From Clostridiales bacterium (GTDB lineage: Bacteria > Bacillota > Clostridia > Lachnospirales > Lachnospiraceae): a stretch of DNA of 59,897 bases. The DNA lies in the NCBI GenBank assembly GCA_012837865.1, contig DUQJ01000003.1, forward strand, positions 1 to 59,897. Direction: 5' to 3'. Position numbers and translations under genes: made by a program. The notes beneath the pieces are model-generated. The model had not been told where the DNA came from. It searched no databases and saw nothing but the letters and a program-made list of their open reading frames with translations. Shown in pieces: positions 56,156-59,897 of the stretch; the stretch's first letter is position 1, and the number at the start of each line of letters is the position of its first letter.

Positions 56156-56830
56156 ATGATGAATATAACAATTGATAATTTATTTACTTTGGACAAAACA
56201 ATTGCTAAATATATATTTGAAGATATAAAATATCCATGGGAAGTATTAAGCAAGATAAAAGAAGAAATTATAGCAATAGGCAACAGACTTGATAAAGATG
56301 AGTATTATTGTGAAAATGAGAATGTTTGGATTGCAAAATCTGCAAAGATAGCACCTAGCGCATGTATAAATGGGCCAGCTATTATAGGGGAGAACACTGA
56401 AATACGACATTGTGCATATATAAGGGGTAATGCTATTATTGGTAATAATGTGGTAGTTGGTAATTCGACAGAATTAAAAAATGTAATTTTATTTGATGAG
56501 GTACAAGTGCCGCATTATAATTATGTGGGTGATTCTATATTAGGATATAAAGCACATATGGGAGCTGGTTCAATTACATCTAATGTAAAATCAGATAAAA
56601 GCTTAATCGTTGTTAAATCTGTTGGGCAAGAATATAAAACAGAACTTAAAAAGTTTGGCGCAATTATTGGAGACTGTGTTGAAATTGGTTGTAACTCAGT
56701 TCTTAATCCTGGAACAATTGTTGGTTCAGGTACTATTGTTTATCCCTTAGCAATGGTAAGAGGATGCGTGCCGAAGAATTCAATATATAAAAACAGAGAA
56801 GAAATTATAGAAAAATATAAGTGGATTTAG
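56156..56830 (+). CDS. Left-handed beta-helix protein, GlmU acyltransferase-like
   Basis: A 224-residue hexapeptide-repeat protein. About 60 N-terminal helical residues precede a beta helix: AKIAPSACINGPAIIGENTEI, IIGNNVVVGNSTELKN, HYNYVGDSILGYKAHMGAGSITSN. The last phrase is that of the GlmU C-terminal acetyltransferase domain, but the uridyltransferase domain is absent. It is usually labelled UDP-GlcNAc pyrophosphorylase-related in Firmicutes; the reaction is not established. GGGAGA precedes twin ATGs (56156 or 56159). It follows topB by 23 bases. Confidence 0.8.
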   Translation: MMNITIDNLFTLDKTIAKYIFEDIKYPWEVLSKIKEEIIAIGNRLDKDEYYCENENVWIAKSAKIAPSACINGPAIIGENTEIRHCAYIRGNAIIGNNVVVGNSTELKNVILFDEVQVPHYNYVGDSILGYKAHMGAGSITSNVKSDKSLIVVKSVGQEYKTELKKFGAIIGDCVEIGCNSVLNPGTIVGSGTIVYPLAMVRGCVPKNSIYKNREEIIEKYKWI

Positions 56831-57008
56831 TTTACATATAAATAAATCTTATTGAAAATAAAAGAAAGTTTTAAAAAACTATGGACTTATCAGTCGTTTT
56901 ATGAGAGAATATGTGAGGAATTTAACAATTTATTGTATGATTTTGCAAGCATTATAAATTAATATAAATATACGAATGCTAACTATGTATTTTGAAAGGA
57001 GTTTCAAC

Positions 57009-57701
57009 ATGATTTATTCACAAGAAATAAAAGCAATGTGCCCAGTCGCAATAGGCGTAAACCATGGCGCAGCACCTATTCCAGAAGAAGGAAAATGGGT
57101 AAAGGCGAAAGAAGTAACTGATATTTCAGGCTTAACTCACGGTATAGGATGGTGTGCACCACAACAAGGTACTTGTAAATTAACTTTAAACGTTAAAGAA
57201 GGTATAATTCAAGAGGCGTTAATTGAAACGATTGGTTGCTCAGGTATGACTCATTCAGCTGCTATGGCATCTGAAATCTTACCAGGTAAAACAATTTTAG
57301 AGGCATTAAACACAGATTTAGTTTGCGATGCTATTAACACTGCAATGAGAGAGTTGTTTTTACAAATCGTTTACGGAAGAACACAAAGTGCTTTTTCTGA
57401 AAATGGACTTCCTATAGGCGCAGGGTTAGAAGATTTAGGTAAAGGTCTTCGTAGTCAAATTGGTACAATGTACGGTACTCTTGCAAAAGGTCCACGTTAC
57501 CTTGAAATGGCAGAAGGATATGTAACAGGCATTGCACTTAATGAAGCTGATGAAATTATAGGATATACTTTTGTAAGTTTAGGAATAATGATGGATTTTA
57601 TAAAAAAAGGTGACGATGCAAATACAGCACTTGAAAAAGCAAAAGGACAATATGGTCGTGTTGAAGATGCTGTTAAGATAATAGATCCAAGACACGAATA
57701 A
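57009..57701 (+). CDS. IscU/NifU-like iron-sulfur scaffold protein
   Basis: A 230-residue protein carrying an IscU-like fold: GTCKLTLNVKEGIIQEALIETIGCSGMTHSAAMASEIL. Cysteines at 11, 49, 56, 77 and 106 could bind a cluster, but do not follow the exact IscU three-Cys spacing. Length is nearly twice that of IscU. No IscS/NifS desulfurase or other suf/isc gene is near. AAAGGAG precedes the ATG at 57009. It is followed after 17 bases by the GGGtGRT gene; I recall the two as a fixed pair in anaerobic Firmicutes. Confidence 0.8.
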   Translation: MIYSQEIKAMCPVAIGVNHGAAPIPEEGKWVKAKEVTDISGLTHGIGWCAPQQGTCKLTLNVKEGIIQEALIETIGCSGMTHSAAMASEILPGKTILEALNTDLVCDAINTAMRELFLQIVYGRTQSAFSENGLPIGAGLEDLGKGLRSQIGTMYGTLAKGPRYLEMAEGYVTGIALNEADEIIGYTFVSLGIMMDFIKKGDDANTALEKAKGQYGRVEDAVKIIDPRHE

Positions 57702-57718
57702 TAAGGAGGATACATATA

Positions 57719-58729
57719 ATGGCTTTATTTGAATCATATGAAAGAAGAATTAATCAAATCAATGCTGTATTAAAAGAATATGGTATTGAATCAATAGAAG
57801 AAGCAGAAAAGATTACAAAGGATGCTGGTCTTGATGTATACAATCAAGTTAAAGGCATTCAAACTATAAGCTTTGAAAATGCTTGTTGGGCTTATATAGT
57901 AGGAGCAGCAATAGCTATTAAAAAAGATGCTAGAAGAGCGGCAGATGCAGCGGCAGCTCTTGGTGAAGGTTTACAAGCATTCTGTATTCCTGGTTCAGTA
58001 GCAGACCAAAGAAAAGTTGGTATAGGACATGGTAACCTAGGTAAAATGTTACTTGAAGAATCAACTGAATGTTTTGCATTTTTAGCTGGCCATGAATCAT
58101 TTGCAGCAGCAGAAGGAGCGATTGGTATTGCTAGTTCCGCTAACCAAGTTAGAACTAAACCACTTAGAGTTATCTTAAATGGTTTAGGTAAAGATGCAGC
58201 TCAAATAATTTCTCGTATTAATGGATTTACTTATGTAGAGACAGACATGGATTATGCAACAGGTAAAGTTTCTGAAGTTAAGCGAGTTTCTTATTCTGAA
58301 GGCGTAAGAGGCAAGGTTAATTGCTACGGCGCTAATGATGTAACAGAAGGTGTTGCAATAATGCATGCTGAGCATGTTGATGTTTCTATTACTGGTAACT
58401 CAACTAATCCGACAAGATTCCAGCATCCAGTTGCAGGAACTTATAAAAAGGAATGTATTGAACAAGGGAAAAAATATTTCTCAGTAGCATCTGGTGGTGG
58501 TACAGGAAGAACACTTCATCCTGATAATATGGCAGCAGGTCCAGCTTCTTATGGCATGACTGATACTATGGGAAGAATGCACTCTGACGCGCAATTTGCA
58601 GGGTCTTCATCTGTTCCAGCTCATGTTGAGATGATGGGATTAATCGGAATGGGTAACAATCCTATGGTTGGAGCTACAGTTGCAGTTGCAGTTGCAATTC
58701 AACAAGCAGCAGAAGCAGGTAAGTTCTAG
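57719..58729 (+). CDS. GGGtGRT protein (uncharacterised family)
   Basis: A 336-residue soluble protein named for the motif GGGTGRT at residues 259-265 (followed by LHPDN). Other distinct features are Ala-rich helices (KKDARRAADAAAALGEG), VRTKPLRVILNGLGKDAAQIISR and an Ala/Val-rich C-terminus. It has few cysteines, unlike its partner. No catalytic function is known to me. AAGGAGG precedes the ATG. It is tightly coupled to the scaffold gene and ends at a strong terminator, so the two form a closed unit. Confidence 0.85.
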   Translation: MALFESYERRINQINAVLKEYGIESIEEAEKITKDAGLDVYNQVKGIQTISFENACWAYIVGAAIAIKKDARRAADAAAALGEGLQAFCIPGSVADQRKVGIGHGNLGKMLLEESTECFAFLAGHESFAAAEGAIGIASSANQVRTKPLRVILNGLGKDAAQIISRINGFTYVETDMDYATGKVSEVKRVSYSEGVRGKVNCYGANDVTEGVAIMHAEHVDVSITGNSTNPTRFQHPVAGTYKKECIEQGKKYFSVASGGGTGRTLHPDNMAAGPASYGMTDTMGRMHSDAQFAGSSSVPAHVEMMGLIGMGNNPMVGATVAVAVAIQQAAEAGKF

Positions 58730-58757
58730 GTAATTTAATATAACATTAAAATAATTA

Positions 58758-58788
58758 GCAGGTACATAAAATTATGTGCCTGCTTTTT
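58758..58788 (+). terminator. Terminator of the scaffold-GGGtGRT unit
   Basis: A 12-bp stem with one G-U pair (58758-58769 with 58772-58783) and five T residues. Confidence 0.9.
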
Positions 58789-58811
58789 CTTGTGCTTTTA
58801 TATATTTTAAA

Positions 58812-58838
58812 TAAGATTTCTAACAAATCAACCGATAT
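58812..58838 (+). promoter_or_regulatory. Sigma-28-like promoter
   Basis: TAAG (58812-58815), a 15-base spacer and ACCGATAT (58831-58838) differ from the SigD/FliA consensus TAAA-N15-GCCGATAT by one base in each element. The start would be near 58845, 35 bases before the next ATG. Confidence 0.65.
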
Positions 58839-58879
58839 TAATTATAAGAGAGTCTTATTTGACTTAAGGAGGAATAAAA

Positions 58880-59338
58880 ATGTGGATAAATACTAATATA
58901 GAAAGTAAAACTAAACATAATATCATTAAAGATATGAAACCTAACAAATCAGTAGTGAGTGATGAGATTATTAGAAATCCAATTAACAAACCTAATGAAT
59001 CAGCTGCTGAAATTATCATCTCTGACAAAGCATTAGAATTACTGAAGAATGAAGAATCTAGAGAAGGAGCAGGTGATCAATTTAATGATCTATCTAAATG
59101 CATAAAAATAGCTATGCGAATTGTTAGTGGAGGCAAGGTGCCATTAAAGGACGAGCAGTTTTTACAAGAAAAAAACCCTGAATTATATTCCATGGCTAAA
59201 AACATGCGAATATTAAATAAAGATAAAAAAGAATACGATAGTGTTTTAGAAGATGAAGATGAAAATCCAATGACAAATATATCAATCGAATCTTATGATT
59301 CTATTGAACTTGGTGAAGCTTTCGAAATGGAGGAGTAG
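58880..59338 (+). CDS. Hypothetical protein, possibly motility-associated
   Basis: A 152-residue polar, acidic-tailed protein with no membrane helix or signal peptide. A helical core (SDKALELLKNEES, SKCIKIAMRIVSGGKVPLKDEQFLQEKNPELYSMAKNMRIL) is flanked by disordered-looking ends, and the C-terminus is rich in Asp and Glu. I do not recognise a named family with certainty. The core phrase recalls short proteins near flagellar genes in Lachnospiraceae. AAGGAGG precedes the ATG. The sigma-28-like promoter is the main support for a motility role. Confidence 0.65.
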   Translation: MWINTNIESKTKHNIIKDMKPNKSVVSDEIIRNPINKPNESAAEIIISDKALELLKNEESREGAGDQFNDLSKCIKIAMRIVSGGKVPLKDEQFLQEKNPELYSMAKNMRILNKDKKEYDSVLEDEDENPMTNISIESYDSIELGEAFEMEE

Positions 59339-59347
59339 ATGTACGGT

Positions 59348-59506
59348 TTAATTATCAACTTCTTCATCTTCCTCAACAATAAGCTCTAAAACATTAATAA
59401 GATCGAAAACTGTATTAAGTTGAACATCTTTTTCTAAAATCATGGCTTTTAAACCCTCAGAGAGGGAATCAAATTTATCTTTTATTTCTGGAGCTACATA
59501 TGACAC
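59348..59506 (-). CDS. Small 52-residue acidic protein
   Basis: An open frame of 52 codons that ends in EEDEEVDN. AAAGGTGG lies seven bases before a GTG at 59506; an ATG two codons earlier (59512) sits too close to that site. Composition is that of a folded helical miniprotein: APEIKDKFDSLSEGLK, then ILEKDVQLNTVFDLINVLELIVEE. I recall similar short proteins, sometimes mis-annotated, in clostridial genomes. Its 3' end faces the 152-residue gene with only nine bases between stop codons. Confidence 0.65.
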   Translation of the reverse strand: MSYVAPEIKDKFDSLSEGLKAMILEKDVQLNTVFDLINVLELIVEEDEEVDN

Positions 59507-59549
59507 AAACATTCCACCTTTCTATAATTGTAATTTAATAATAGTATGA

Positions 59550-59596
59550 CCCATATAAGAAAAAATATTATATATTGTCTTATTTTTTTATATGGG
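59550..59596. repeat. Inverted repeat in a divergent promoter region
   Basis: CCCATATAAGAAAA (59550-59563) pairs with TTTTTTTATATGGG (59583-59596), about 14 positions with one G-U. It covers the promoter of the metH-like gene and lies upstream of the small minus-strand gene, so it may be an operator or a hairpin. Confidence 0.6.
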
Positions 59597-59603
59597 CTAT
59601 ACT
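59575..59603 (+). promoter_or_regulatory. Promoter of the homocysteine methyltransferase gene
   Basis: TTGTCT (59575-59580) and TATACT (59598-59603) are 17 bases apart. No SAM, B12 or T-box leader fits in the remaining short leader. Confidence 0.65.
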
Positions 59604-59635
59604 TATTACAAGATATTTACAGATTAGGAGAAGCT

Positions 59636-59897
59636 ATGACTAGGAGAGAGTGGAAGGATTTAATTGAATCAAAAATAGTGATACTTGATGGCGCAATGGG
59701 TAGTAACCTTCAAGAAGCTGGTATGGAACCAGGAGTTTCAACTGAAAAGTGGATAATAGATAACTCTGACATAGTAATCAACTTACAGAAATCATATTTA
59801 GAAGCAGGTGCAGATATTATATATGCACCTACATTTGGAGCAAATGGAATTAAATTAAAAGAATATGGTCTTGATAATAAAGTTGATTTTATAAATA
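59636..59897 (+). CDS. Homocysteine S-methyltransferase, N-terminal part (metH-like)
   Basis: The first 87 residues of a protein that runs off the window. VILDGAMGSNLQEAGM, the TEKWIIDNSDIVINLQKSYLEAGADIIYAPTFGAN segment and GANGIKLKEYGL match the homocysteine-binding barrel that opens cobalamin-dependent methionine synthase MetH and its shorter relatives. The zinc Cys residues would lie beyond the end. TAGGAG precedes the ATG. Whether it is full MetH or a short BhmT-like form cannot be seen here. Confidence 0.85.
   Translation, partial: MTRREWKDLIESKIVILDGAMGSNLQEAGMEPGVSTEKWIIDNSDIVINLQKSYLEAGADIIYAPTFGANGIKLKEYGLDNKVDFIN

What the first reader, a model, noticed from the sequence alone, without database searches (positions are those of the whole stretch)
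57009..58729. IscU-like scaffold plus GGGtGRT protein: a closed two-gene unit of unknown function
The two genes are 17 bases apart, bounded by a terminator, and away from any desulfurase, suf or isc gene. The scaffold is about twice IscU length with five cysteines not in IscU spacing. The partner has a unique Gly-rich GGGTGRT-LHPDN motif resembling a nucleotide or phosphate loop. I infer a dedicated cluster carrier and its client or maturase, not general Fe-S assembly. This is the best candidate in the window for an undescribed system.
Basis: partly seen in the sequence, partly recalled or inferred. Interest (0 to 1): 0.7.

Follow-up and report, generated by a model that had tools for sequence, protein, structure and literature searches.

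The report
Conserved iron-linked two-protein unit, function unknown
Two neighbouring genes, one a remodelled relative of the cell's iron-sulfur scaffold and one of a family with no known function, travel together through many gut and other bacteria and, in two published studies, are made mainly when iron is plentiful, so they probably form a still undescribed iron-sulfur machine.

Summary
The pair is real. Gene 1 (57009-57698) is a divergent IscU/NifU_N relative; gene 2 (57719-58726) is Pfam GGGtGRT (626 bits), 17 nt apart, terminator after the second. In 150 genomes of the window's family each gene was found in 122, both in 120, adjacent in 119. The pair also occurs in Bacteroidota, Collinsella and Vibrio. 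No third gene family exceeds 29 of 111 loci. A canonical Rrf2-NifS-IscU-MnmA locus lies elsewhere, so general Fe-S assembly is unlikely. The scaffold keeps three invariant cysteines (49, 77, 106), lacks the IscU C-G-D and LPPVK signatures, and its second half resembles a degenerate IscU repeat. Published data: 11-12.8-fold lower in iron-depleted B. thetaiotaomicron, 7.1-fold more protein with iron in C. pasteurianum; canonical IscS/NifU proteins of C. difficile rise at low iron. I favour an iron-sulfur enzyme or cofactor complex over a maturase. Cluster, activity and contact are untested; the motif region could not be modelled. None of nine held papers naming GGGtGRT shows a function.

The parts
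57009..57701 (+). IscU-related scaffold-like protein (230 aa; invariant C49, C77, C106)
   Evidence: PF01592 21.5 bits, cut-off 22, as protein, 22.2 in the genome scan; hhalign to canonical IscU 96%, E 4e-9 over residues 33-103
57105..57317 (+). first IscU-like repeat, residues 33-103, with C49 and C77
   Evidence: C77 aligns with IscU Cys59 of the same genome, C49 lies three residues before the place of IscU Cys33
57534..57692 (+). possible second, degenerate IscU-like repeat, residues 176-228, no cysteine
   Evidence: second-best hhalign alignment; residues 148-230 score 22.3 against shuffled columns mean 11.6, max 18.8, 0 of 300; three strands then two helices in the weak model; direct N-half against C-half not significant
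57324..57326 (+). codon of invariant Cys106; aligned with an Arg, not a Cys, of A. fulgidus NifU-1
57702..57718 (+). 17-nt gap with ribosome-binding-site-like AAGGAGG
57719..58729 (+). GGGtGRT protein, Pfam PF14057 (336 aa)
   Evidence: 626.5 bits, cut-off 27
58478..58672 (+). core of GGGtGRT, residues 254-318: 53 of 65 positions invariant in 22 rows; GGGTGRTLHPDN lies here
58757..58784 (+). terminator-like hairpin followed by a T-rich tail

Best explanation
The two genes encode one obligate two-protein iron-sulfur complex that cells make when iron is plentiful. The first protein is an IscU-fold protein (one live repeat and probably one degenerate repeat) that holds an iron-sulfur cluster with three cysteines (C49, C77, C106), leaving an open iron site. 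The second, GGGtGRT, docks on it and supplies an almost invariant pocket rich in Gly, Ser, His, Asp and Arg (residues 254-318). I think it most likely that the pair works as an iron-dependent enzyme or cofactor-bearing complex in its own right, with the former scaffold kept as a cluster-holding subunit, and that clusters reach it from the canonical NifS-IscU system encoded elsewhere. Shown here: the pairing, the homology, the invariant residues, the separate canonical locus. Shown by others: the iron response and detection in proteomes. Inferred: the cluster, the complex, the pocket, the catalysis. The substrate is unknown.
For: Both genes in 120 of the 124 genomes that have either, adjacent in 119 of 120; every full-length GGGtGRT locus printed has the scaffold, including Bacteroidota, Collinsella, Subdoligranulum and Vibrio. 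Distances correlated, r=0.844. C49, C77 and C106 in 22 of 22 rows; 53 of 65 positions invariant in GGGtGRT 254-318; invariant H104, H125, H236, H267, H288, H302. Iron: BT0173-74 down 11-12.8-fold in iron depletion, against ferritin 2.7, rubrerythrin 3, hydGEF 2.9-3.6 and hcp 3.6 in the same study; C. pasteurianum GGGtGRT 7.1-fold (early) and 2.2-fold (late) higher with iron, NifU-related spots 2.4 and 3.7 early, 1.6 and 2.9 late. Opposite sign for canonical proteins of C. difficile at low iron: log2 2.69 for IscS2 and 3.83 for NifU protein, 4.43 for iscR RNA. Detected in metaproteomes in lists with glycolytic and ribosomal proteins and called highly expressed in one paper, which would be high for an assembly factor. 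No client gene travels with the pair: the next commonest neighbour family is in 29 of 111 loci, many with short flanks.
Against: No experiment shows a cluster, a complex or an activity. GGGtGRT matches no family but its own convincingly, and the fold search found nothing with E <= 0.001, so 'enzyme' rests on conservation. Lower expression in iron depletion also fits an iron-fed maturase or a store. Abundance is taken from passages in papers, not measured here. For C. difficile the iscS2 and NifU transcripts barely change at low iron (log2 0.55, 0.83) and fall in the fur mutant (-3.25, -2.97). Outside the window's family the pair is patchy: 10 of 199 genomes of the phylum sample.
Confidence: 0.42

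Rival explanations
1. Dedicated carrier or maturase: the scaffold builds or carries a cluster and GGGtGRT helps hand it to one particular client enzyme of anaerobic metabolism.
For: Homology to IscU; fixed pairing; falls in iron depletion together with Fe-S enzymes.
Against: No gene is consistently linked that could be the client (commonest third family 29 of 111 loci); reported high expression; 0 of 99 rows (96 distinct sequences) have LPPVK or an N-terminal C[GA]D.
Confidence: 0.3
2. Iron or iron-sulfur store: the pair keeps surplus iron and sulfide as clusters and releases them on starvation.
For: Strong iron-sufficient expression, larger than that of ferritin in the same study; reported abundance.
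Against: A store would not obviously need a 65-residue stretch with 53 invariant positions; GGGtGRT has no invariant cysteine.
Confidence: 0.13
3. A further general Fe-S assembly system that takes over part of the work of SUF.
For: In 125 good genomes of the family full SufB plus SufD is commoner where the pair is missing (11 of 22) than where it is present (25 of 103), Fisher p=0.02, not corrected for relatedness; 12 of 28 against 29 of 122, p=0.06, in all 150. The window's own genome shows no SUFBD core, but is 80% complete.
Against: Any SUFBD protein (full or short) is equally common with and without the pair (87 of 122, 20 of 28); the control genome Bacteroides ihuae has both families and Collinsella has both close together; a canonical locus exists; the iron response has the opposite sign.
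Confidence: 0.07
4. GGGtGRT is a nucleotide-dependent partner, by analogy with the SufC or Mrp ATPases.
For: Weak Foldseek match to trypanosome phosphofructokinase (E 0.014, TM 0.26) and a glycine-rich loop.
Against: No lysine in GGGTGRT (a Walker A loop, recalled, needs GK[ST]); no NTPase family among the matches of 22 members; the loop itself was not modelled (pLDDT below 50).
Confidence: 0.08

Closest known systems
IscU / NifU N-terminal domain (PF01592; canonical IscU of the same genome at G000:C119)
   Same: Homologous core over residues 33-103, hhalign 96%, E 4e-9; C77 at the place of the second IscU cysteine; the top eleven fold matches are IscU or SufU structures, though weak (best E 0.16).
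   Different: 230 against 145 aa; no C-G-D, no LPPVK (0 of 99 rows); C49 lies three residues off the first IscU cysteine and C106 matches no IscU cysteine; possible second, cysteine-free repeat; no desulfurase beside it in the window; iron response of opposite sign.
GGGtGRT protein (Pfam PF14057)
   Same: Full-length match, 626.5 bits.
   Different: Nothing: it is a member. No function was shown in the nine held papers that name it (passages read in all nine); one lists it among hits of a virulence-factor prediction (PMC9942572).
SmsCB minimal SUF system (PMC12192291; passages seen)
   Same: A two-component unit for Fe-S handling.
   Different: Other proteins: SmsB has a beta-helix core and SmsC is an ABC-type ATPase (recalled); no SUFBD-core protein was found in the window's genome.

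Membership tests
PF14057 GGGtGRT | profile score over the curated cut-off (27 bits), full length | tested here: met
   626.5 bits, residues 4-330 against profile 1-327 of 327
PF01592 NifU_N | profile score over the curated cut-off (22 bits) | tested here: inconclusive
   21.5 bits as protein, 22.2 in the six-frame scan; relatives lie at 20.5-23.4; only about profile positions 38-95 of 127 match
IscU/SufU/NifU models of NCBIfam | curated cut-offs of TIGR03419, TIGR01999, TIGR01994, TIGR02000 | tested here: not met
   25.6, 20.9, 17.9 and 13.6 bits against 187.9, 192.4, 92.5 and 273.3
IscU scaffold | ligand cysteines in C-G-D ... GC ... HC arrangement, LPPVK segment (recalled; seen in the canonical alignment) | tested here: not met
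   0 of 99 rows have LPPVK or an N-terminal C[GA]D; only C77 aligns with an IscU cysteine
IscU scaffold | common descent / IscU fold | tested here: met
   hhalign 96%, E 4e-9; the fold search agrees but is weak
IscU scaffold | binds a labile cluster and passes it on | not testable with these tools
   needs protein
Isc/Nif/Suf assembly operon | cysteine desulfurase or Suf scaffold genes beside it | tested here: not met
   no IscS, SufS, SufU or SufD hit in the window; Collinsella has sufBDSU about 1.9 kb upstream, with a transposase between
P-loop NTPase | Walker A motif GxxxxGK[ST] (recalled) and an NTPase profile match | tested here: not met
   GGGTGRT has no lysine; no NTPase family among the Pfam matches of 22 members

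The most novel reading that the evidence does not exclude
A new class of iron-sulfur enzyme: an IscU-type scaffold, duplicated and with one half emptied of its cysteine, has become the permanent cluster-holding subunit of a catalytic protein with no detectable relatives (GGGtGRT), giving an abundant, iron-fed enzyme of anaerobic bacteria from several phyla, including the gut microbiota.
Probability: 0.35. Interest if true: 0.82.

Novelty: new variant of a known kind. Interest (0 to 1): 0.6.

Why it matters
The pair stands as adjacent genes in 119 of 150 sampled genomes of the family and in other phyla, is reported as highly expressed in gut anaerobes, and in B. thetaiotaomicron falls more in iron depletion than ferritin, rubrerythrin BT3182, hydGEF or hcp do. 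An iron-dependent function of this spread with no assigned role is a real gap. If the IscU-like protein turned out to be a fixed cofactor subunit, that would show how an assembly scaffold can become part of an enzyme. The residues and the locus (BT0173-BT0174) make it directly testable.

Tried and rejected
Remote relatives of GGGtGRT: phmmer and profile searches of PDB sequences, Pfam and NCBIfam scans of 22 members and NCBIfam of 10 of them, Foldseek against PDB and viral models. Outside PF14057 itself only weak hits in one or two members appeared; the best was a transketolase profile in two members, E 2.3e-4, 19.6 bits against a cut-off of 575, over 75 residues in the one member shown.

Regulatory DNA: k-mer enrichment in 115 upstream regions gave the ribosome-binding site and promoter-like TGAGAAAAT (39 of 115) or TGCGAAAAT (23 of 115); no regulator site was recognised. 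Rfam over 56700-59897: one sub-threshold L20 leader match that spans the terminator, taken as chance.

Co-occurrence with SUF: weak negative association only, not corrected for relatedness. Internal duplication: the N half against the C half did not exceed shuffled columns (score 14.4, shuffle max 18.9), and the N half scored higher (16.5) against the reversed C half; only the IscU profile against the C half exceeded its shuffles, with low hhalign probability (3-11%), so the duplication is suggestive only, and it was looked for after I saw the sequence resemblance.

My first reading of the B. thetaiotaomicron table as 2.7-fold (note) was wrong; the row reads 11-12.8-fold (corrected). In near relatives the PF01592 profile seemed to show the pair in few genomes; PF14057 showed it in 12 of 13, so PF01592 is too weak to count this scaffold.

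Not done: co-occurrence with hydrogenase, Hcp or other client families; a complex model (no tool offered); a wide survey of Bacteroidota and other phyla.

Full report
What is there. The window is contig C208 of a genome listed as 80.5% complete; that it is a member of the Lachnospiraceae is inferred from its named nearest relatives. The scaffold gene starts at 57009; an in-frame ATG at 56976 gives a 241-aa ORF, but GAAAGGAG before 57009 and the start shared with relatives favour 57009. Gene two runs 57719-58729 including its stop. A terminator-like hairpin follows at 58757-58784. Upstream, 178 nt separate the scaffold from a same-strand ORF, and no + strand terminator was found there. Two upstream neighbour families recur, mostly at positions -2 and -3, in 29 and 21 of 111 loci, which I read as local synteny.

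Pairing. In the first 90 loci (80 from the scan of named genomes, 10 from genome searches) 89 hold both genes side by side; the other, L056, begins only 46 bases before the GGGtGRT gene. Among 150 genomes of the family, PF14057 was found in 122 and the scaffold profile A2 in 122; both in 120, adjacent within 184 nt in 119. The exceptions are G199 (fragments on different contigs), G234 and G296 (partial GGGtGRT only), G216 and G246 (partial scaffold only). Partial matches in fragmented assemblies suggest contig ends; I did not inspect them one by one. In a phylum sample 10 of 199 genomes have PF14057, and all ten show the scaffold beside it. In 13 genomes, the window's own and 12 near relatives, 12 have PF14057; the one without is 78% complete. 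Plasmid-collection records add Parabacteroides, Bacteroides, Phocaeicola, Persicobacter, Subdoligranulum, Collinsella and Vibrio (10 records); eight were opened and all eight are paired. Parabacteroides has a 63-aa ORF between the two.

The scaffold. By Pfam it sits on the edge of NifU_N (21.5 bits, cut-off 22; 22.2). Against an alignment of nine canonical IscU proteins of related genomes and one SufU, hhalign gives 96%, E 4e-9 over residues 33-103. C77 aligns with IscU Cys59; the place of IscU Cys33 is taken by Q52, three residues after C49. Cysteines in 22 diverse rows: 49, 77 and 106 in 22, 56 in 19, 11 in 13. C[GA]D near the N terminus and LPPVK occur in 0 of 99 rows (96 distinct sequences). 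The C-terminal half resembles IscU a second time: the second-best alignment pairs residues 176-228 with IscU 42-99, and residues 148-230 score 22.3 while 300 column shuffles reach at most 18.8. Direct N-half against C-half comparison is not significant, and a reversed control scores higher. The weak model of the C half has three strands followed by two helices. I read this as a tandem IscU-like protein with a degenerate, cysteine-free second half; it is suggestive only.

GGGtGRT. The other 21 sequences of a diverse alignment are 62-90% identical to the window protein. Residues 254-318 have 53 of 65 positions invariant; six histidines (104, 125, 236, 267, 288, 302) are invariant and no cysteine is, the nearest being C118 in 19 of 22. 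The AlphaFold model (pTM 0.81) has a helical N-terminal part and an alpha/beta part, but residues 258-301, nearly the whole motif region, are below pLDDT 50. Fold search: no match with E <= 0.001; best is trypanosome phosphofructokinase at 0.014 with TM 0.26. The proposed phosphate loop is neither shown nor excluded; it is not a Walker A loop.

Iron. From PMC5395762 (section 11 and passages read): in C. pasteurianum the GGGtGRT protein F502_05012 is 7.1-fold (early) and 2.2-fold (late) more abundant with iron, and the NifU-related F502_05017 2.4 and 3.7-fold (two spots, early), 1.6 and 2.9-fold (late). From PMC10434189 (first of six parts of section 7, and passages): BT0173-74 fall 11-12.8-fold in iron depletion, P given as 0; in the same study ferritin falls 2.7, rubrerythrin BT3182 3, hydGEF 2.9-3.6 and hcp 3.6. 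In PMC6311696 (passages) canonical proteins of C. difficile go the other way at low iron: IscS2 log2 2.69 and NifU 3.83, with iscR RNA 4.43; the RNA of iscS2 and NifU changes little (0.55, 0.83) and falls in a fur mutant at high iron (-3.25, -2.97). Different species and media are compared, so the contrast is an argument, not a measurement.

Literature. Nine held papers name GGGtGRT. Passages were read in all nine; none shows a function. PMC11204068 calls it poorly characterised and highly expressed in vivo. PMC9942572 lists it among hits of a virulence-factor prediction in C. innocuum, without a test. PMC12014591 lists it and a NifU-domain protein with consecutive locus tags, both as down. 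Searches for PF14057 (only unrelated identifiers), BT_0174, NifU-related domain or protein and nitrogen-fixing protein NifU added no function; some searches were wider. The held library lacks most subscription journals and all bioRxiv, so this absence is limited to it.

Interpretation. A general assembly role is unlikely: the genome has Rrf2-NifS-IscU-MnmA elsewhere (names read from the sequences, with IscU confirmed by PF01592 at 166 bits). The choice is between a cofactor-bearing enzyme, a dedicated maturase and a store. I rank the enzyme first because no client gene is linked in the loci seen, reported abundance is high, and GGGtGRT has a long invariant core of the kind expected of an active site; these are inferences.

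Mobile elements. Of 104 loci with an ORF after the pair, 12 carry an integrase-like ORF downstream (ten at +1, one each at +2 and +3; two are short); none of 100 with an ORF at -2 carries one upstream. Five representatives were scanned: four match Phage_integrase and the short fifth an integrase arm domain. Phocaeicola L128 has an intact gene followed by that fragment and a second copy of codons 277-330, and six viral-contig loci (L134-L139) hold only the last 51-64 codons inside the contig. The 3' end of the GGGtGRT gene is therefore probably an attachment site for integrating elements in Clostridia and Bacteroidota; junctions were not mapped.

Noticed in passing
L128 5983-9286; L134-L139; downstream of the pair in L006, L048, L111, L112: The 3' end of the GGGtGRT gene looks like an attachment site for integrating elements: integrase-like ORFs downstream in 12 of 104 loci, none upstream in 100, and separate 3' gene ends in L128 and six viral-contig loci.
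   Followed up: partly
G000:C119 14558-17868 (L145 2559-5869): Canonical Rrf2-NifS-IscU-MnmA locus; no SUFBD-core match in this 80.5% complete genome.
   Followed up: partly
Family sample: Genomes of the family carry two kinds of SUFBD protein: full SufB (about 470 aa or more, E below 1e-77) with SufD in 41 of 150, and only weaker, mostly single matches of about 310 aa in 66 of 150, which look like minimal SmsB.
   Followed up: no
G283:C1 1346985-1348673 and 1560587-1562305: One genome carries two complete copies of the pair, one clearly more divergent (534 against 634 bits for GGGtGRT).
   Followed up: no
L121 5800-5988: Parabacteroides has a 63-aa ORF between scaffold and GGGtGRT; only a sub-threshold DUF6320 match.
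   Followed up: partly
window 58880-59338: 152-aa ORF after the terminator that I did not identify.
   Followed up: no
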